Source: Pacificimonas pallii (GTDB taxonomy: Bacteria > Pseudomonadota > Alphaproteobacteria > Sphingomonadales > Sphingomonadaceae). From it: DNA of 64,000 nucleotides. The stretch's first letter is position 1. Each line of letters opens with the position of its first letter. The stretch lies in assembly GCF_019204005.1 (NCBI RefSeq), contig NZ_JAGSPA010000004.1, forward strand, positions 1 to 64,000, given 5' to 3'. Made by a program: the position numbers and the translations under genes. Below are positions 37,466 to 44,664 of this stretch, piece by piece. The notes below the pieces were generated by a model. The model was not told where the DNA came from. It saw only the letters and a program-made list of their open reading frames with translations, and made no database searches.

Positions 37466-39328
37466 TCAGGCCGCACGTTTCTGCCCCGGACCTTCATCCT
37501 CGAACAGCTGTGCCAGCTGCTCCACCATCGTGCCGCCCAGCTGTTCGGCGTCCATGATGGTGACGGCACGCTTGTAATAGCGGGTCACGTCATGGCCGAT
37601 GCCGATGGCGATCAGCTCAACGGGGCTTTTGGTCTCCACCCAGTCGATCACCTGCCGCAAATGGGTTTCCAGATAATTGCCGCTGTTCACGCTGAGCGTG
37701 GAATCGTCGACCGGGGCGCCATCGGAAATCACCATCAGGATGCGGCGTTCCTCCGGGCGGCTGGCAATCCGGCTGTGCGCCCATAACAGCGCCTCGCCGT
37801 CGATATTTTCCTTCAAAAGCCCCTCGCGCATCATCAGGCCCAGATTCTTGCGCGCGCGCCGCCACGGTGCATCGGCGGGCTTGTAGACGATGTGGCGCAG
37901 GTCGTTGAGGCGGCCGGGCTGTGCCGGGCGGCCTTCCTGCAACCATTTTTCGCGGCTCGATCCCCCCTTCCAGGCGCGGGTCGTGAAGCCGAGAATTTCC
38001 GTTTTCACACCGCAGCGTTCCAGCGTGCGGGCCAGAATGTCGGCGCAAATGGCGGCGATGGAAATCGGCCGTCCGCGCATCGATCCCGAATTGTCGATCA
38101 GCAGCGTGACGACCGTGTCGCGAAAATCGGTATCGCGCTCGACCTTGTAGCTCAGCGAGCTTGTCGGGTTGGTGATGATGCGGGCCAGGCGGGCGGCATC
38201 GAGCATGCCCTCCTCCTGATCGAAGTCCCAGGCCCGGTTCTGCTGCGCCAGCAATTTGCGCTGCAACTTGTTGGCGAGCTTGGCCACCACACCCTGCAGG
38301 CTGGTCAGTTGCTGGTCCAGATAGCTACGCAGCCGGGTCAGTTCCTCGGGATCGCACAGCTCTTCGGCACCCAGGATCTCGTCATATTCCGCAGTAAACG
38401 CCCCGTAATCGAACGTCTTTGGCAGGTCGGTCCACGGCATGTTGGGGCGGAAAGGCTGCATGCCCTCATCCGCCTCGTCACCCATTTCCGCATCGGCCAG
38501 GTCGTCAAAGTCCATTTCGGCGTCCTGGTCGCCCTCCTGCGGTTCACCGTCGGAATCTTCGGAACGCGTGTCGAGCGCACTGTCCTGACCGGCGGCATTG
38601 TCGTCGTCCTCTTCATCCTCGTCGCCGTCCGAATCGTCGGGATCATCGTTTTGATCATCATCGGGCTCGGTGGATTCGGTGTCGTCATCCTCTTCCGCGC
38701 CCTCAAGTTCCAGATCGCGCAGGATACTTCGTGTCAGCCTTGCGAAGGCTTTCTGGTCGTTGAGCAGTGCGGGCAGGTCATCCAGATGCTCGCCCGCCTG
38801 GTCTTCGATCCAGTCGCGTACCAGCGATACGCCGAGCGCCGCCTGTTCCGGTACCGGCGCGCCCGTCAGCCGCTCCCGTACGATCAGGCCGACAGCGGTC
38901 GATAGCGGCACTTCATCCGCATCGCGTGCCCGCGCGATCGGATCGATACGCGTGCGCGCGCTGACCATTGCGTCCAGATTGGCTGAAGTCCCCGGCATCG
39001 CGTTCGCGCCAATGGCCTCATAGCGGGCGAGCTCGATCGCGTTGAAGACATCGCGCGCCGCGCCCGCCGCGGGCTGCGCCGCCATATGCGCCGCCGCGTT
39101 ATGATACCGCTGTTTCAGCGCGAACGTATCGGCCCAGCCCCGGCATTCGGCAATTTCGCGTGCGGGCATGGCGCGCGGCGGCTGCGGCACGCGCGCGGAA
39201 TTTGCCGAGGAAGAGGGTTTGTCGGCGGTGTAGCTCAGCTCGAACTCATCCACATGTCCCATCGCGCGCAGCGTGGCGGCGAGGGCATGGCGGAAATCCT
39301 CAACAGGGGAATCTGACTTCGCGCTCAT
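37466..39328 (-). CDS. cobT: Cobaltochelatase subunit CobT
   Basis: A 620-aa subunit of the ATP-dependent aerobic cobaltochelatase (CobNST), which inserts cobalt into hydrogenobyrinate diamide. An N-terminal helical region is followed by a very acidic linker (about 210-290, DDD/EDE/EEDDD runs) and a C-terminal von Willebrand A domain with the MIDAS motif DNSGSMRG and a later DGAP. Partner cobS lies 4.3 kb away rather than adjacent. A CobN large subunit is not in the window. Confidence 0.93.
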
Positions 39329-39879
39329 CGGCTCCGACCTTGTAACTTCACACTCACTTCACACTATGTCCGCTGGTGAGATGGTGCGGCCAGAATGCCG
39401 CGCGCGCAGCCTTATCGGCAGCGGCGTGCCGGTTCGAAACGGGAAAGCACCGCAGGGCGGCTGATCGGATGTCATGCATCGGCGGATTGTCGGTGAAGAA
39501 ACCCTATTTTGCAACCTGCGGAAATGACACGGGGGGGGGCAGAGCGCGGGAGCGGAAGCGCAAGGTGTCTTTATGCAGGGTGCGCGGGAAAGGACACCGA
39601 AGCCGGGAGCCAGGCCGTGCAGGAATGATGTGCATTCCGTCCACGCCATTCCTGCACCGACGGAACATGGCAAGAAAATTCATTTCGACTTTGAATTTAT
39701 CAAGAATTCTATGAAAGAAATATAGATATTATATAATAATATTCACAGATGATTTACGCATGTGCTTAATTTTACATAGAATTATGTAAGAATAATACCA
39801 ATGAAAATTGGAAATATATTTTCATTGGGAATGATCCGCTTTGGATCAATTATCTTTGCCAGTTTGCTGATTATTAACG
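39329..39879. other. AT-rich intergenic region with stacked inverted repeats
   Basis: No gene is supported in these 551 bp. A run of nine G lies at 39531-39539. From about 39670 the composition switches to strongly AT-rich, unlike its surroundings. Three perfect inverted repeats follow: TTACATA/TATGTAA at 39772-39789, CCAATGAAAAT/ATTTTCATTGG at 39798-39828 (9-nt loop), and TGATCC/GGATCA at 39832-39848. They lie 30-110 bases before the GGDEF gene and may regulate it or mark an insertion boundary. Confidence 0.6.
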
Positions 39880-41766
39880 ATGTTGACCATATATAATTGC
39901 ATGCATATGTTTCTGAAATCATCGAGAATATTGGGGCCACTGCTCTTTTTGCTGGCTTATGCCGGATCGGCGATGCTGACGATGCAGTTCCTGTCCATTG
40001 GCGGGAGCGTGCCGATAATCTGGCCGGCAAGCGGCCTTGCCCTCGCGGTGCTACTCCTGACAAAAAAGAACCGGCGGATCTATTATCTTGCCGCCCTGTT
40101 CACGGGCAGCGCGGCCGTGAGTATGGCCATGATGGCGCCGCCCGGCACGGTGCTGGCGTTCGCCATGGCAAACGTGCTGGCGGCGTTGAGCGCGGCCGCG
40201 CTGCTTGACCGCTTCGCACGCGGAAAATTGCAATTTTACACATTTAGGGGCGTCAGCGGTTTCACCACCTGCATGCTCGCGGCCGCTTCTGTCGGTGCGG
40301 CGACGGCCACGCTGCTAACCCAGGGCAGCGGGGCATTTTTCATGTCGTGGGGAATGACCATATTCCTGGGCCTTATGATCGTGGCACCGATGCTGGTTTT
40401 CCTGGCGAAGATCCGCAGCAGGGAATGGGGCCATTATGGCGCCAAATGGCCGCGCCTCGAAATTGCGGGCCTTTTCATGCTGAGTTTGGCAGTCGTCGTC
40501 CCTGTCTTCGCGCAAACGACCTATCCGATCCTCTTTCTGACGCCGGTCGTGGTCATGATCGCTGCCTACAGAATGGGCATGGTGGGCGCGAGTATGACCG
40601 TGTTTCTGATCGCGGTCATCAGCACCGTGCTGACTGAATATGGGTCGGGACCGGTGCGGCTGAGCGAGGCGGGTACGGCGGGACAGGTCCTGTTCCTGCA
40701 ATTCTACCTGCTGGTCCTCTTGCTATTCGCCTTCCCGCTGGCCGCCGCATTGGCGAGAAACCGGCGCATGGCAAAGCAATTGGCGAAGACCAATAAGGGC
40801 AATGCCCGGCTGATCGAAACCCTGGAGCGCACAAACAGGCAGTTCAGCCTCGCCGAGCGGATGGCAAAAGTCGGATCATGGCGGCTGGACCTGGCCACCG
40901 ATGAGGTGAACTGGTCGGAGCAGACAGCCGCGATCCACGGGCTTTCGGGCAATACCGAGATGCTCGACAATGCGCTGGAATTCTATCCCCCCGAGGAACG
41001 CCGGATTACCGAGGCGGCTGTGGCCGAATGCGTCGCAGATGGCACCCCCTTCGATCACGAACTGGATTTCGTCGATGCGAACGGTGTGAAGAAGCGCGTG
41101 CGCGCGATGGGCATTCGCGAAATGAAGGACGGCGCGCCCACTGCCCTGATCGGTGTGTTTCAGGACATCACGGCCCGCTACCGGATGGAACAGGACCTGC
41201 GCCGACGCATCTATACCGATGAACTGACCGGACTCTACAGCCGCGCCTTTGCCTATGAAGAACTGGACAAGGGCGCCGATGCCGCCCGCGCGAATGGCGG
41301 CGACTTCGCCGTGTTGCTGCTCGACCTGGATAATTTCAAGAACGTCAACGACCGGCTGGGTCATCTGGCGGGTGACAGCGTGCTGCGGCAGATCGGCGAG
41401 GCCCTGCGCTCCGCGCCGTTCGATAGACATATCGCGGCACGGCTGGGCGGTGATGAATTCGTCGTGCTTATCGATGATGCGCGCACGCTGAGCGATCTGG
41501 AGGGCACGATTTCAGAAATGCTGGAAGCGCTGCGCATTCCCATATTTGATGAAGGCGACACCATCATGGTGTCGGCCACGATGGGCGCGGCGGCCCTGAC
41601 CAGCGGCACGAAGAACCATTCCGACCTTCTGAAGCGGGCGGATGAGGCGCTGTACCGTGCCAAGGCCCATGCGCGCGGCACCGCCGCCATCGCGGGCACA
41701 TCGCAGCGTGTCTACCGTACGAACCATGACGGGCTGGTGGATTTCGTACATATCGGCAGGGAATAG
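39880..41766 (+). CDS. MASE1-PAS-GGDEF diguanylate cyclase
   Basis: A 628-aa membrane sensor. A MASE1-type domain with about 8-9 transmembrane segments (10-300), a short coiled linker, a PAS/PAC domain (about 325-430, VGSWRLDLATDEVNWSEQ...GVFQDITARYRMEQDL) and a GGDEF domain (about 440-605) with an intact LGGDEFVVL (GGDEF at 523-527) are present. It should make cyclic-di-GMP. The RxxD inhibitory I-site expected five residues before GGDEF is not conserved (F and H occupy those positions), so product inhibition may be absent. In-frame ATGs at 39901 and 39907 are alternative starts. Confidence 0.9.
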   Translation: MLTIYNCMHMFLKSSRILGPLLFLLAYAGSAMLTMQFLSIGGSVPIIWPASGLALAVLLLTKKNRRIYYLAALFTGSAAVSMAMMAPPGTVLAFAMANVLAALSAAALLDRFARGKLQFYTFRGVSGFTTCMLAAASVGAATATLLTQGSGAFFMSWGMTIFLGLMIVAPMLVFLAKIRSREWGHYGAKWPRLEIAGLFMLSLAVVVPVFAQTTYPILFLTPVVVMIAAYRMGMVGASMTVFLIAVISTVLTEYGSGPVRLSEAGTAGQVLFLQFYLLVLLLFAFPLAAALARNRRMAKQLAKTNKGNARLIETLERTNRQFSLAERMAKVGSWRLDLATDEVNWSEQTAAIHGLSGNTEMLDNALEFYPPEERRITEAAVAECVADGTPFDHELDFVDANGVKKRVRAMGIREMKDGAPTALIGVFQDITARYRMEQDLRRRIYTDELTGLYSRAFAYEELDKGADAARANGGDFAVLLLDLDNFKNVNDRLGHLAGDSVLRQIGEALRSAPFDRHIAARLGGDEFVVLIDDARTLSDLEGTISEMLEALRIPIFDEGDTIMVSATMGAAALTSGTKNHSDLLKRADEALYRAKAHARGTAAIAGTSQRVYRTNHDGLVDFVHIGRE

Positions 41767-41825
41767 CGCGGGCGGCGGTTGCTGGCGGTGGTGAGGGTGC
41801 GGGCGCGTGTTGGGGGCGAGGGCAA

Positions 41826-41856
41826 TTGACATTGTACATATATCTGCACATATTTA
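41826..41856 (+). promoter_or_regulatory. YefM/YoeB promoter and operator
   Basis: TTGACA (41826-41831) forms a consensus -35, with TATTTA-like -10 sequence near 41851. Overlapping it are TGTACA (41833-41838) and TGCACA (41845-41850), 12 bases apart. TGTACA is the known YefM-binding core, so this is a likely autoregulatory operator. Confidence 0.5.
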
Positions 41857-41875
41857 ACCGTGAGAGGATAATGTC

Positions 41876-42130
41876 ATGCAGGCCATCAGCTACTCGGATA
41901 CACGCGCCAATCTGAAATCGGTCATGGACCGCGTGTGCGCGGACAAGATTGCCGTGACCGTGACACGGCAGAAGGCCGAGGGCGTCGTCATGGTGTCCCA
42001 AAGCGAGTGGGAGAGCATGCAGGAGACGCTGTATTTGCTCAGTTCGCCTAAGAACGCCGAACACTTGCTGGAAGCGATTGCGGAGCTGGACGCAGGCGGC
42101 GGTGAGGAACATGAACTGATCAAGCCGTGA
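41876..42130 (+). CDS. yefM: YefM/Phd-family antitoxin
   Basis: An 84-aa antitoxin: MQAISYSDTRANLKSVMDRVCADKIAVTVTRQKAEGVVMVSQSEWESMQETLYLL is the Phd/YefM DNA-binding and dimerisation domain, followed by the flexible toxin-binding tail. It neutralises the downstream YoeB toxin and represses the operon. GAGAGGA lies about 8 bases upstream of the ATG. Its stop overlaps the toxin start by 4 bases (GTGA). Confidence 0.93.
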   Translation: MQAISYSDTRANLKSVMDRVCADKIAVTVTRQKAEGVVMVSQSEWESMQETLYLLSSPKNAEHLLEAIAELDAGGGEEHELIKP

Positions 42131-42393
42131 AGGTGGTTTTCTCTTCGCGCGGCTGGGCGCAGTATGTATCCTGGCAGGCCGAGGACGGAAAGACGCTCAC
42201 CCGCCTGAATGCCCTGATCGAGGAATGCCGCCGCACACCCTTTCGCGGCACCGGCAAACCCGAACCGCTGGGCGGCAACCTACGCGGCTGGTGGTCCCGC
42301 CGTATCGACCGCGAGCATCGGCTGGTTTATCGGGTCAGTGGCAAAGGCGACACGCAGGCGCTGGAGATCGCGCAGTGCCGGTATCATTATTGA
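42127..42393 (+). CDS. yoeB: YoeB-family mRNA-interferase toxin
   Basis: An 88-aa RelE-fold ribosome-dependent mRNase. Diagnostic blocks are FSSRGWAQYVSWQ, LIEECRRTPFRGTGKPEPL, GWWSRRIDREHRLVYRV and the C-terminal CRYHY. The family catalytic residues (Glu in LIEE, Arg in DREHRLVYR, and the terminal His-Tyr) are present, so the toxin should be active. GTG start, translationally coupled to yefM. Confidence 0.94.
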   Translation: MKVVFSSRGWAQYVSWQAEDGKTLTRLNALIEECRRTPFRGTGKPEPLGGNLRGWWSRRIDREHRLVYRVSGKGDTQALEIAQCRYHY

Positions 42394-42431
42394 ACTGACG
42401 GGCTGCTGACATGGGGAATTTAGTGTGGTGT

Positions 42432-42487
42432 CCCCGGAACCTGCCCCCGGAACCTGCCCGGAACCTGTGAACCTGTGCCCGGAACCT
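42432..42487. repeat. Cluster of GGAACCTG short tandem repeats
   Basis: The unit (CCC)GGAACCTG occurs at about 42433, 42446 and 42457. A shortened TGAACCTG follows at 42468 and a final CCCGGAACCT ends at 42487. The copies are irregularly spaced, and the cluster sits between the YoeB toxin and the 59-codon gene, at the edge of the AT-richer segment. Confidence 0.6.
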
Positions 42488-42495
42488 CAAGGTCG

Positions 42496-42675
42496 CTAGC
42501 TTCCTGTGGGAACAAAATTCTGAAGCTCGTTAAATTTTTTGCCTTCAGTTTTTAAAGGATTAGCGGAAGCAGAGCCAGACCGACCCTCATATCGCTGATA
42601 ATGATACTGGGGGCTTGGCATTGTTTTGCCCGGAACAACCCGCACTTCGGAAGGTGACTCTTTACGATCAGGCAT
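42496..42675 (-). CDS. 59-aa small protein coupled to the Ntn-hydrolase gene
   Basis: A 60-codon frame, previously easy to miss. Its ATG (42673-42675) lies inside the last codons of the proteasome-like gene (CATGCCTGA, 8-base overlap), a typical translational-coupling arrangement. The product starts MPDRKESPSEVRVVPG and has a Tyr/Ser-rich centre (SPQYHYQRYEGRSGSAS) and a C-terminus ending NFVPTGS. It is polar, has no membrane segment and looks partly disordered. No family is recognised. It could be a substrate, regulator or partner of the upstream hydrolase; that is inference from position only. Confidence 0.55.
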   Translation of the reverse strand: MPDRKESPSEVRVVPGKTMPSPQYHYQRYEGRSGSASANPLKTEGKKFNELQNFVPTGS

Positions 42676-43519
42676 GATCTGTCTCCGTAGGGTTTAGGTG
42701 AGCGTCGTAGTAATGCTTTCTCCGTATCCACTTAAAGCCTTCATGCTTCGTTACCGTGGCAATATCAGTATCACCTCCTACAATGTCAGCCCCTGGTAAG
42801 AAGGCAAAGTATCGCTTCGTCAAATCGACCAAAAAATCCGCCAAAGCGATAGCGTCCTGCACTGGCATTGCTGCATGAACGAGCGGCGTCAGCAATCGTT
42901 GCCCAACCTGTGCTAAGAGGGGCTGGACAGTCCCTTCTGGTATACCGGCTTCCACCAACCCATCAGCGAGTTCCGCATCATAGCCTAAAATGAGCCGTTG
43001 AATGGGTTTCGGCTGACCACCCCATGACACGTGTCCGCTTTGGCTTTCGTCAGCTATCAACTCCGGATCGTACACCTCACCATCGGAAATCACAAGTTTC
43101 CAGATCTCTGCATTATCGCAGTTTGCTCCATATCCGCCGATCCAAAACTCAAATCCATGCGGGCTTGCCGGACTAGGGTCAATTTGCACGTACTTTTCTG
43201 AGAAGAATGCGTGAGCGCGCGTTACAACTTCTTTAATAGTATAATTTTCTGGATCGATTTTATCGCCATTGACACCTTTCGTGATCATCCGGCGAAAATC
43301 TTTGGCTAAATTACCTATGGATGCATAGCCCATATGACCCATGCCGCAAGTCATGGCGACAATCGGTTTTCCTTTATAAAGATTGAAAACTTTGTTCCCA
43401 TGATCGTACACATTCAGAACCACAGGATCGCCATTCGATGCAGAACCGACCAACGACGAAGCGCTATCTGCAGCAAAAATAAGACAATCATGTACTTTCA
43501 CAGAAACACAAACTGTCAT
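42668..43519 (-). CDS. Proteasome/HslV-like Ntn-hydrolase-fold protein
   Basis: A 283-aa protein of no named family that I recognise. The N-terminus MTVCVSVKVHDCLIFAADSASS matches the proteasome-beta/HslV pattern: a threonine directly after the initiator Met (potential N-terminal nucleophile), D18 (D17 after Met removal, the proteasome position) and a later lysine in NKVFNLYKGKPIVAMTCGMG, where the family has its catalytic lysine. It has an unusually long C-terminal extension of about 100 residues. AAGGGA lies 5 bases before the ATG. There is no ATPase partner nearby. Base composition is lower in GC than the flanks, suggesting transfer. It is distinct from canonical HslV and does not show the Anbu signature. 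Confidence 0.65.
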   Translation of the reverse strand: MTVCVSVKVHDCLIFAADSASSLVGSASNGDPVVLNVYDHGNKVFNLYKGKPIVAMTCGMGHMGYASIGNLAKDFRRMITKGVNGDKIDPENYTIKEVVTRAHAFFSEKYVQIDPSPASPHGFEFWIGGYGANCDNAEIWKLVISDGEVYDPELIADESQSGHVSWGGQPKPIQRLILGYDAELADGLVEAGIPEGTVQPLLAQVGQRLLTPLVHAAMPVQDAIALADFLVDLTKRYFAFLPGADIVGGDTDIATVTKHEGFKWIRRKHYYDAHLNPTETDHA

Positions 43520-43647
43520 AACGTTCCCTTTTCAGGGTCTAGAATCAAATTAATTCCAATTATGCAACAAAATTCTTAGTAGTGAACGAAGCCCTGGAAG
43601 GGGGAGCGAATTTACCGTTCGTTACACCTGATGCTTTTCCGTCGAAT

Positions 43648-44664
43648 TTACCCCCGCGCCTTTGACACCACGCTCTCCGGCAGATCCTCGCCAAAGACCC
43701 GCTGGTAGTATTCCGCCACAATCGGGCGTTCCAGTTCGTCGCATTTGTTGAGGAAGCTGACGCGGAAGGCGAAGCCGAGAGTGCCGAAGATGCCGGCGTT
43801 CTGGGCCCAGGTGAGGACCGTGCGGGGGCTCATGACTGTCGAAATGTCGCCGTTCATGAAGCCCTGCCGCGTCATGTCGGCGACCTTCACCATGTTTTCG
43901 ATCCTGGCCTTGCCGTCGTCGCCTGCGAACATCTTTCCGGCCTTGGCGTGGACGATGTCGATTTCGGTCGCGGCGGGGAGGTAGTTGAGGGTGGTGACGA
44001 TGTTCCAGCGGTCCATCTGGCCCTGATTGATCTGCTGCGTGCCGTGATAAAGCCCGCTGGTGTCGCCGAGGCCGATGGTGTTACTCGTCGCGAACAGGCG
44101 GAAGAACGGGTTCGGGCGGATGACGCGGTTCTGGTCGAGGAGGGTGAGCTTGCCCTCCACCTCCAAGACGCGCTGGATCACGAACATCACGTCCGGGCGA
44201 CCCGCGTCATATTCATCGAACACAAGCGCGGTCGGCGTTTGCAGCGCCCAGGGCAGCAGCCCTTCGCGGAATTCGGTGACCTGCTGGCCGTCTTTCAGCA
44301 CGATGGCGTCCTTGCCGATCAAGTCGATGCGGCTGATGTGGCTGTCGAGGTTGATGCGCACGCAGGGCCAGTTCAGGCGCGCGGCGACCTGCTCGATATG
44401 GGTGGATTTGCCGGTGCCGTGATAGCCCTGGATCATGACGCGGCGGTTGAAGGCGAAGCCCGCGGCGATCGACAGGGTCGTCTCCGGGTCGAAGACATAA
44501 TCGGGATCGAGATCGGGAACCAGCTCGTCCGCCTTGGAAAAGGCGGGAATTTTCATGTCGATATCGACGCCGAACGTCTGACGCGCGTCCACCTCGGTAT
44601 CGGGCGCGCTCATGATGGTCGCGTTGGTCATGTCACTGTCATTGGGGACGGGCTGGCTGGCCAT
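43648..44664 (-). CDS. cobS: Cobaltochelatase subunit CobS (AAA+ ATPase)
   Basis: A 338-aa MoxR/CobS-type AAA+ ATPase: Walker [10 protein letters not shown], Walker [14 protein letters not shown], sensor 1 [11 protein letters not shown]. It forms the ring that with CobT drives cobalt insertion by CobN. Internal ATGs at MTNATIM or MSAPDTE are possible starts. It is followed (upstream on the same strand) by a J-domain gene, a common alphaproteobacterial arrangement. The 128 bp separating it from the Ntn-hydrolase gene is AT-rich and has no gene. Confidence 0.94.

What the first reader, a model, noticed from the sequence alone, without database searches (positions are those of the whole stretch)
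42496..43519. Proteasome-like Ntn hydrolase translationally coupled to an unknown 59-aa protein
The N-terminus (Thr after Met, D17-type aspartate, downstream Lys) matches the proteasome-beta/HslV active-site pattern, yet there is no HslU, Mpa or Anbu-type partner. Its stop region encloses the ATG of a 59-codon gene by an 8-base overlap. The AT-richer composition and position next to a toxin-antitoxin pair suggest mobile cargo. A self-compartmentalising protease with a small coupled partner would be a new two-component system, possibly defensive or regulatory.
Basis: partly seen in the sequence, partly recalled or inferred. Interest (0 to 1): 0.68.

Follow-up and report, generated by a model that had tools for sequence, protein, structure and literature searches.

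The report
Proteasome-like enzyme with antitoxin-like partner
A little-known bacterial relative of the proteasome is encoded together with a small, fast-changing protein, and in distant relatives that small protein looks like the antidote of a toxin encoded next to it, which suggests a cellular shredder dedicated to switching toxins on.

Summary
ORF 42668-43519(-) has a proteasome-beta/Anbu fold (AlphaFold pLDDT 91.7; best Z 20.3, Anbu) with Thr1, Asp17 and Lys33 equivalents in place. In 82 aligned rows Asp and Lys are invariant and residue 2 is Thr or Ser in all 81 scorable rows. The protein family is probably already described as a PMI proteasome homologue (Fuchs et al. 2021), a paper that reported no informative genomic context. 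The context is the new part. A small coding ORF starts at the hydrolase stop in 67 of 84 loci (15 expected by chance). It evolves about twice as fast as the hydrolase or faster. In 20 of 80 loci a toxin-antitoxin toxin (PIN, MazF or RelE/ParE) follows on the same strand. In the PIN loci the small protein's C-tail matches that of a stand-alone AF2212-like antitoxin. So the small protein is antitoxin-like, and the hydrolase is plausibly its dedicated protease. The window carries the toxin-free two-gene form on AT-rich DNA in a variable cobT-cobS interval. No cleavage, binding or toxicity was shown; a folded hydrolase-partner fusion left the partner disordered. The mechanism is inference, about 45% likely.

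The parts
42668..43519 (-). Proteasome-like Ntn hydrolase, 283 aa (PMI-type), first gene of the module; T2/D18/K43 = Thr1/Asp17/Lys33 equivalents
   Evidence: catalytic columns; fold; Anbu/20S beta
42496..42675 (-). 59-aa partner gene, antitoxin-like by comparison with relatives; YHYQ motif and GSGSAS stretch in the middle
42668..42675 (-). 8-nt overlap of hydrolase stop and partner start (translational coupling, inferred)
   Evidence: offset -8 is the commonest, 17 loci,
42683..42686 (-). GGAG Shine-Dalgarno-like site of the partner gene, inside the hydrolase gene
   Evidence: read
41876..42393 (+). YefM-YoeB toxin-antitoxin pair, convergent neighbour; not in the operon, relation unknown
37466..39328 (-). 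cobT, conserved left border of the variable interval (context only)
43648..44664 (-). cobS, conserved right border of the variable interval (context only)

Best explanation
The locus is a two-gene module: a PMI-type proteasome-like Ntn hydrolase and a small, probably disordered, fast-evolving partner whose start overlaps the hydrolase stop. Shown: the predicted fold and the catalytic residues, the conserved partner gene, and that in many relatives the partner gene sits where an antitoxin gene sits, directly before a PIN, MazF or RelE/ParE toxin. In the PIN loci its C-tail is similar to the tail of an ordinary VapB-like antitoxin. Inferred: translation of the partner is coupled to the hydrolase; the N-terminal/central part of the partner (in part of the family a Y-x-Y-Q motif) is recognised by the hydrolase and the C-terminal tail holds the toxin or another target. 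Met removal exposes Thr1. On an unknown cue the hydrolase cuts or degrades the partner without an AAA+ unfoldase, because the partner is disordered, and frees the toxin. In the window's toxin-free form the same enzyme-partner pair would control a target encoded elsewhere, or the hydrolase itself.
For: Fold and active site: pLDDT 91.7; Anbu 5nyw Z 20.3 and 20S beta Z about 19-20, model residue 2 aligned to Thr1; D18 and K43 in 82 of 82 rows, T or S at position 2 in 81 of 81 rows with a residue. Partner: 67 of 84 loci against 15.0 expected; pN/pS 0.18-0.69, at least 1.7 times the hydrolase's in 23 of 25 pairs; Y.[YF]Q in 13 of 79 partners against a shuffled mean of 0.3. Toxins: Pfam PemK in L035, L053, L054, PIN in L043, L078, L066, ParE_like in L044, ParE in L045. 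Position: 20 toxin-family ORFs directly after the partner and 4 elsewhere among 5640 ORFs of 80 loci; toxin types spread over the tree, 7 changes among the four labels where 3 is the least possible (a quick tree). Tail: HMM of 13 partner tails hits the antitoxin of a hydrolase-free VapBC (L147; AF2212-like PF01954, 1.8e-9) at 2.4e-7 and L148 at 2.3e-6, E-values for 72 targets. A more distant relative (L111) has partner plus PemK. The long PMI-4-like relatives have a partner ORF in 47 of 59 testable viral-contig loci.
Against: The window and its whole 17-row clade (alphaproteobacterial but for L021, from a MAG labelled Nitrospinota) show no toxin directly behind the partner, so the mechanism is carried over from relatives. 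60 of 80 loci have no recognised toxin there. 12 of the 20 toxin loci are one Acidobacteria PIN clade (two of them, L051 and L066, from one MAG), and well-supported branches alone force more than one origin only for the MazF and the uncatalogued type. The AlphaFold job on an in-frame read-through fusion (L106) left the partner at pLDDT about 32-64 with no docking. No proteolysis, binding or toxicity data exist. The partners as a set have no common motif: Y.[YF]Q is in only 13 of 79, many of them related, and none of 10 partners tried hits a Pfam antitoxin. The toxin profiles were built from the same downstream genes, so only the scarcity elsewhere is a control. The tail evidence was obtained for the PIN type alone; for the MazF type a plasmid search found nothing, for the RelE type only an E=2 match to a ParD antitoxin.
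Confidence: 0.45

Rival explanations
1. The hydrolase is itself the harmful effector and the small protein is its dedicated inhibitor (a two-gene toxin-antitoxin pair with a protease as toxin); downstream toxins are extra cargo.
For: The form without a recognised toxin is the commoner one (60 of 80 loci); coupled small partner evolving fast; 60 distinct long PMI-4-like relatives among the 80 kept from viral contigs, where such cargo is common.
Against: In 20 loci the partner is placed directly before a classical toxin and in the PIN type its tail resembles an antitoxin tail; a simple inhibitor would not need this.
Confidence: 0.22
2. The hydrolase is a processing or ligating enzyme (like connectase) that matures the small protein as a peptide precursor.
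For: Connectase is a ligase of the same superfamily (PMC8665760); short precursor-like partner with an aromatic motif in part of the family.
Against: Partner tail resembles an antitoxin tail in PIN loci and toxins follow; neighbour clustering (top 25 clusters seen) showed no export or maturation gene recurring beside the module.
Confidence: 0.1
3. The hydrolase fold acts as a holdase that protects or presents the antitoxin, as in toxin-antitoxin-chaperone systems (recalled), and catalysis matters little.
For: Third gene tied to a toxin-antitoxin pair, partner predicted without structure.
Against: Nucleophile, Asp and Lys are kept in all rows that can be scored.
Confidence: 0.08
4. Hitch-hiking: hydrolase, small ORF and toxins merely share mobile DNA and have no functional link.
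For: Mobile context, variable flanks; TA genes are frequent on mobile DNA (general knowledge).
Against: Same order and strand across phyla, often with short overlaps; tail sharing; toxin families scarce elsewhere in the same loci.
Confidence: 0.1

Closest known systems
PMI proteasome homologues (PMI-1 to PMI-6; Fuchs, Alva and Lupas 2021, PMC8665760, parts 1-5 of 6 read)
   Same: Proteasome-like Ntn hydrolases with insertions, no propeptide, catalytic triad kept, found in Bacteria and Euryarchaeota; PMI-4 also in phages (their Table 1). Our family (A4) and the long family common on viral contigs (A7) are full-length homologues (hhalign probability 99.9).
   Different: The paper reports no genomic context suggestive of function and no AAA+ partner; a partner gene and toxins are not mentioned in the parts read. 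Its reference sequences could not be fetched, so the exact subgroup (PMI-2 for the window, PMI-4 for A7) is my guess.
Anbu, 20S proteasome beta subunit, HslV
   Same: Fold and active-site geometry.
   Different: No match to the Pfam proteasome model; no ATPase gene beside it; the adjacent partner is a small protein.
COG2856 Zn-protease + Xre + RelE/PIN 'three-component TAS' (Makarova, Wolf and Koonin 2009, PMC2701414, passages read)
   Same: Works like it: operon-encoded protease proposed to cleave the antitoxin of a RelE or PIN toxin.
   Different: Unrelated protease class; there the cleaved protein is an Xre (HTH) repressor, here a small partner without a recognised domain.
VapBC, MazEF, RelBE type II toxin-antitoxin systems
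   Same: Toxins of these families follow the partner gene; tail of the PIN-type partner shared with an AF2212-like antitoxin.
   Different: A proteasome-like gene stands first; in the PIN loci the tail sits on another N-terminal part than in the stand-alone antitoxin; the window has no toxin.

Membership tests
Proteasome-like Ntn hydrolase | N-terminal Thr/Ser nucleophile with Asp17 and Lys33 | tested here: met
   T/S 81 of 81 scorable rows, D 82 of 82, K 82 of 82
Proteasome-like Ntn hydrolase | Proteasome-beta alpha-beta-beta-alpha fold | tested here: met
   predicted model: (Anbu Z 20.3, rmsd 2.5 over 200 residues)
Proteasome-like Ntn hydrolase | Ring or split-ring assembly | not testable with these tools
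   monomer prediction only
PMI-2 proteasome homologue | Insertion between helices H3 and H4 | tested here: inconclusive
   model has two further helices (184-190, 195-209) between 171-178 and 220-239; not superposed on a PMI-2 reference
PMI-2 proteasome homologue | Sequence clustering with WP_137109689.1 | not tested
   reference sequence not available here
PMI-2 proteasome homologue | Distribution in Proteobacteria, Firmicutes, Actinobacteria, Bacteroidetes, PVC and Euryarchaeota (Table 1 of PMC8665760) | tested here: inconclusive
   homologues in all of these by record title, but distribution does not define a family
HslV / 20S proteasome (Pfam PF00227) | Pfam Proteasome model | tested here: not met
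   no family at E up to 1
HslV | HslU partner beside it | tested here: not met
   neighbours are the 59-aa gene, YoeB (convergent) and CobS
Type II toxin-antitoxin operon (window) | Toxin gene in the same operon | tested here: not met
   no toxin on the minus strand after the 59-aa gene; YefM/YoeB is on the other strand
Type II toxin-antitoxin operon (relatives) | Toxin gene directly after the small gene | tested here: met
   20 of 80 loci, Pfam checks on examples; 60 of 80 have none recognised
Type II toxin-antitoxin operon (relatives) | Small protein shares the tail of a known antitoxin | tested here: met
   PIN type only: (2.4e-7) (AF2212-like); MazF and RelE types inconclusive
Type II toxin-antitoxin operon | Neutralisation of toxicity | not testable with these tools
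   bench assay
COG2856 three-component TAS | HEXXH zinc protease | tested here: not met
   no HEXXH in the 283-aa sequence (by eye); Ntn fold instead
Known anti-phage system (PADLOC) | Match to a PADLOC model | tested here: not met
   none for the window pair and six relatives' hydrolases (E up to 1 and 0.01)

The most novel reading that the evidence does not exclude
PMI proteasome homologues are dedicated proteolytic switches of a polymorphic toxin-control system: one conserved proteasome-like enzyme is paired with a rapidly swapping antitoxin-like adaptor whose tail decides which toxin (PIN, MazF, RelE or an uncatalogued protein) is released, and prophages carry the two-gene form as immunity or conversion cargo. 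It would be, as far as my searches go, the first system in which a proteasome-fold protease is part of a toxin-antitoxin operon and acts without an unfoldase on a disordered antitoxin.
Probability: 0.35. Interest if true: 0.9.

Novelty: new variant of a known kind. Interest (0 to 1): 0.72.

Why it matters
The function of the PMI proteasome homologues was left open in 2021 for want of informative context; this gives them a partner gene, a candidate substrate and a pathway that can be assayed at once. It would also add a built-in protease to toxin-antitoxin biology, where antitoxin loss is usually put down to housekeeping Lon and Clp (general knowledge), and it would show how a 20S-like fold may act on a natively disordered substrate without an ATPase.

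Tried and rejected
Tried without result: Pfam, NCBIfam and PADLOC on the window pair, phmmer against PDB sequences (best 0.4, chance); PHROGs gave only the long family phrog_5990, unknown function. Tblastn against plasmids gave 9 partial hits, best coverage 43%, and against phages 20 records, 16 of them covering at least 80% of the query at 22-23% identity, in Pseudomonas phages; the small ORF of that phage gene (L016) was not clear. The second AlphaFold job (a read-through fusion) showed no docking. A Gibbs search for one motif over all partners scored above shuffled sets (563.6 against 471-488) but gave a mixture, no single motif. Conserved neighbours other than the partner and toxins: none in general among the 25 largest clusters; phage genes in five Firmicute or viral loci, two of them copies. 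Neighbours of 16 loci of the window's clade are mixed (76 of 88 candidate ORFs given to Pfam; 25 of 46 families shown; IS1595 transposases, a phage integrase, one YoeB). Plasmid searches for the partners of L035 and L045 were uninformative. L094, a member of the PIN clade without a PIN gene, seemed a co-loss case; its similarity to its neighbours' partners is clear for L073 (0 of 500 shuffles reach it), less so for L077 and L066 (6 and 14 of 500), and absent for the other three.

Considered and rejected: a Pup-like tag (recalled; no GGQ/GGE end and gene order reversed); YefM/YoeB of the window as the controlled pair (opposite strand, not conserved).

Rows dropped before counts: L032, L042, L095, L096 and L097 (broken or cut hydrolase frames) were left out of the partner counts (one search shows them). 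L093 (frame-broken) was kept but not in A4. L103, L104, L105 and L107 (copies of other loci) were dropped; still holds them, and A4 still holds L103 and L104. L040 has a RelE-like gene that looks frame-broken; it was not counted as a toxin locus but was labelled RelE in the tree. L079's partner was mis-called by my script (its PIN gene starts 187 bp after the wrong ORF); it is among the 20 but not among the 13 tails. L149, a fifth PIN genome, was not resolved. In one search one of 60 distinct loci was not testable, and no shuffle control was run on that set.

Full report
Observation. The 283-codon ORF at 42668-43519 (minus strand) and the 59-codon ORF at 42496-42675 exist as described, with an overlap of 8 nt. 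After Met removal the hydrolase would start with Thr1, with Asp at 17; Lys43 of the precursor takes the place of Lys33. The pair is AT-rich (47.7 and 46.7% GC; window 61.4%). It lies with a diguanylate cyclase and a YefM/YoeB pair between cobT and cobS. In three congeners that interval (about 3.0-3.3 kb) holds DNA without detected similarity to the window's insert, so it is a variable site. The genome holds one other proteasome-family gene, which passes PF00227, elsewhere.

What the large protein is. No Pfam, NCBIfam or PADLOC model matches it. AlphaFold with 82 aligned rows (the window and 81 loci, two of them near-copies) gives pLDDT 91.7 and pTM 0.88. The nearest solved structures are Anbu (5nyw, Z 20.3, rmsd 2.5 over 200 residues) and 20S beta subunits (Z about 19-20), with model residue 2 on Thr1. 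Across the 82 rows Asp18 and Lys43 are invariant and residue 2 is Thr (68) or Ser (13) in all 81 scorable rows. It is therefore very likely an active N-terminal-nucleophile hydrolase. Fuchs, Alva and Lupas 2021 (PMC8665760; parts 1-5 of 6 read) describe 22 novel prokaryotic proteasome homologues, among them PMI-1 to PMI-6. The authors state that no genomic context suggested a function.

The partner gene. From 80 genome loci (94 relatives found, 80 kept) and viral loci, 84 were scored as having a hydrolase frame of 250 residues or more; four are near-copies of others and one (L093) is frame-broken. In 67 of these 84 a Shine-Dalgarno-led ORF of 40-140 codons starts at -26..+30 of the hydrolase stop; dinucleotide shuffles give 15.0. 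With looser rules 81 of 84 have one. The commonest offset is the window's -8 (17 loci). The ORF is coding: pN/pS is 0.18-0.69 in 25 pairs, while the hydrolase of the same pairs has 0.13-0.30. Synonymous sites are saturated in many pairs, so these are rough. The partner's ratio is at least 1.7 times the hydrolase's in 23 of 25 pairs and equal in two. A Y-x-[YF]-Q motif occurs in 13 of 79 partners against a shuffled mean of 0.3 and maximum of 4. Several of the 13 are close relatives of the window, but others lie far off (L037, L046, L061, L063, L070).

Toxins behind the partner. Clustering of neighbours found a PIN family directly behind the partner in 12 Acidobacteria loci, and reading the third genes found MazF and RelE/ParE types elsewhere. 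Pfam confirms PemK (L035 1e-22, L053 1e-19, L054 1e-25), PIN (L043 1e-12, L078 8e-8, L066 1e-6) and ParE-type toxins (L044 6e-12, L045 1.5e-5; L076 only 0.003, below cut-off). Over all 5640 ORFs of 55 or more codons in 80 loci, profiles of these toxins and of the window's YoeB hit 20 ORFs on the same strand within -80..+200 of the partner's stop and 4 elsewhere. One of the 4, L093, is the same arrangement with a broken hydrolase frame. The profiles were built from the downstream genes, so the control is the scarcity elsewhere. Of the 20, 12 belong to one Acidobacteria PIN clade. On the hydrolase tree (a quick tree with SH-aLRT support) the four gene-3 labels need 7 changes where 3 is the least possible, and toxin against none needs 8; but well-supported branches alone force more than one origin only for MazF (2) and the uncatalogued type (2) (the RelE label includes the uncounted L040). 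Three further loci (L033, L049, L064) have an uncatalogued protein behind the partner. A more distant hydrolase (L111, E 1.8e-42) also has a small ORF followed by a PemK gene (1.5e-7).

The partner is antitoxin-like. A search for the PIN family in 247 genomes of the phylum of L078's genome (Acidobacteria by its record title) found it in 5 at E 1e-12. Two are hydrolase loci (L145, L146). One (L147) is a plain VapBC: an AF2212-like antitoxin (PF01954, 1.8e-9) followed by PIN, with no hydrolase among the ORFs of the 1.5 kb fetched upstream. A profile of 13 hydrolase-linked partner tails hits that antitoxin's tail at 2.4e-7 and the protein before the PIN of L148 at 2.3e-6; the 70 other partners searched do not pass (best 0.18; E-values for 72 targets). 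So in the PIN loci the partner consists of an antitoxin tail on an N-terminal part that is found with the hydrolase. For MazF and RelE types I have position only, plus a weak ParD-like match.

Wider family. The window family and the long PMI-4-like family are full-length homologues (hhalign probability 99.9, E 1.7e-35). Of 80 long relatives kept from viral contigs (159 found), 60 are distinct, and 47 of 59 testable ones have a small ORF at the stop (no shuffle control). Many of these share visible subfamilies and an aromatic stretch such as [YF]F-x-[LIV]-P (read by eye). None of the seven toxin profiles hits there. The two-gene form is therefore the general one and the toxin-bearing form a repeated extension.

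Mechanism. The most economical reading is that the hydrolase recognises the N-terminal/central part of its partner and cuts or degrades it. Where the partner's tail holds a toxin, this releases the toxin. The partner's predicted disorder (pLDDT about 32-64, for L106) would make an unfoldase unnecessary. Recognition, cleavage, release and the trigger are all inferred. The one structural test, a read-through fusion of L106, did not dock the partner. In the window there is no toxin behind the partner, so the target of its tail is unknown.

Literature. Searches for proteasome-like/Ntn terms together with toxin-antitoxin, PIN, prophage, defence or three-component terms returned no paper that, by title or abstract start in the listings seen, links the two. 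The listing of papers that cite Fuchs et al. (4 listed of 5) shows none on this by title; in the one citing review opened (PMC13022661, passages) the word toxin does not occur. The nearest precedent is the predicted COG2856 protease three-component TAS (PMC2701414, passages). The library lacks most subscription papers and all preprints.

Verdict. Real and more interesting than stated: a known but functionless proteasome-homologue family gains a dedicated partner and, in relatives, a toxin-antitoxin context. Mechanism unproven.

Noticed in passing
window 41876-42393 and L024: YefM-YoeB lies about 100 bp from the end of the 59-aa gene, convergent; in Sphingomonas mali (L024) a close YoeB lies 158 bp upstream of the hydrolase on the same strand. 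Whether the association means anything is open.
   Followed up: partly
window 39329-43647: The cobT-cobS interval is a variable site: three congeners carry other DNA there without detected similarity to the window's insert.
   Followed up: partly
L151-L230: Long PMI-4-like proteasome homologues are common in IMG/VR contigs (159 relatives, 80 kept, 60 distinct), with a small ORF (mostly 37-70 codons) downstream in 47 of 59 testable; several recurring neighbours lie on the opposite strand, as in prophage cargo.
   Followed up: partly
L033, L049, L064: The gene behind the partner is an uncatalogued protein with an S-x-x-CDL motif (by eye), perhaps a new toxin; no Pfam hit for L033 and L049, no NCBIfam hit for both, no PADLOC hit for L049.
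   Followed up: partly
L094: A hydrolase inside the Acidobacteria PIN clade lacks a PIN gene, and its partner is not hit by the PIN-type tail profile: a possible natural co-loss.
   Followed up: partly
L148: The protein before a stand-alone PIN of the same family is a long ORF with a macro-domain-like start (by eye, recalled) that ends in the same antitoxin tail.
   Followed up: no
L016 (Pseudomonas phage LESphi2), 287-1309: A 340-aa proteasome-like protein of Pseudomonas aeruginosa phages, annotated proteasome subunit beta, is similar over 97% of the query at 22% identity and lies opposite to the tail genes.
   Followed up: partly
window 42423-42490: Short GGAACCTG-like repeats just beyond the end of the 59-aa gene, seen by eye.
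   Followed up: no
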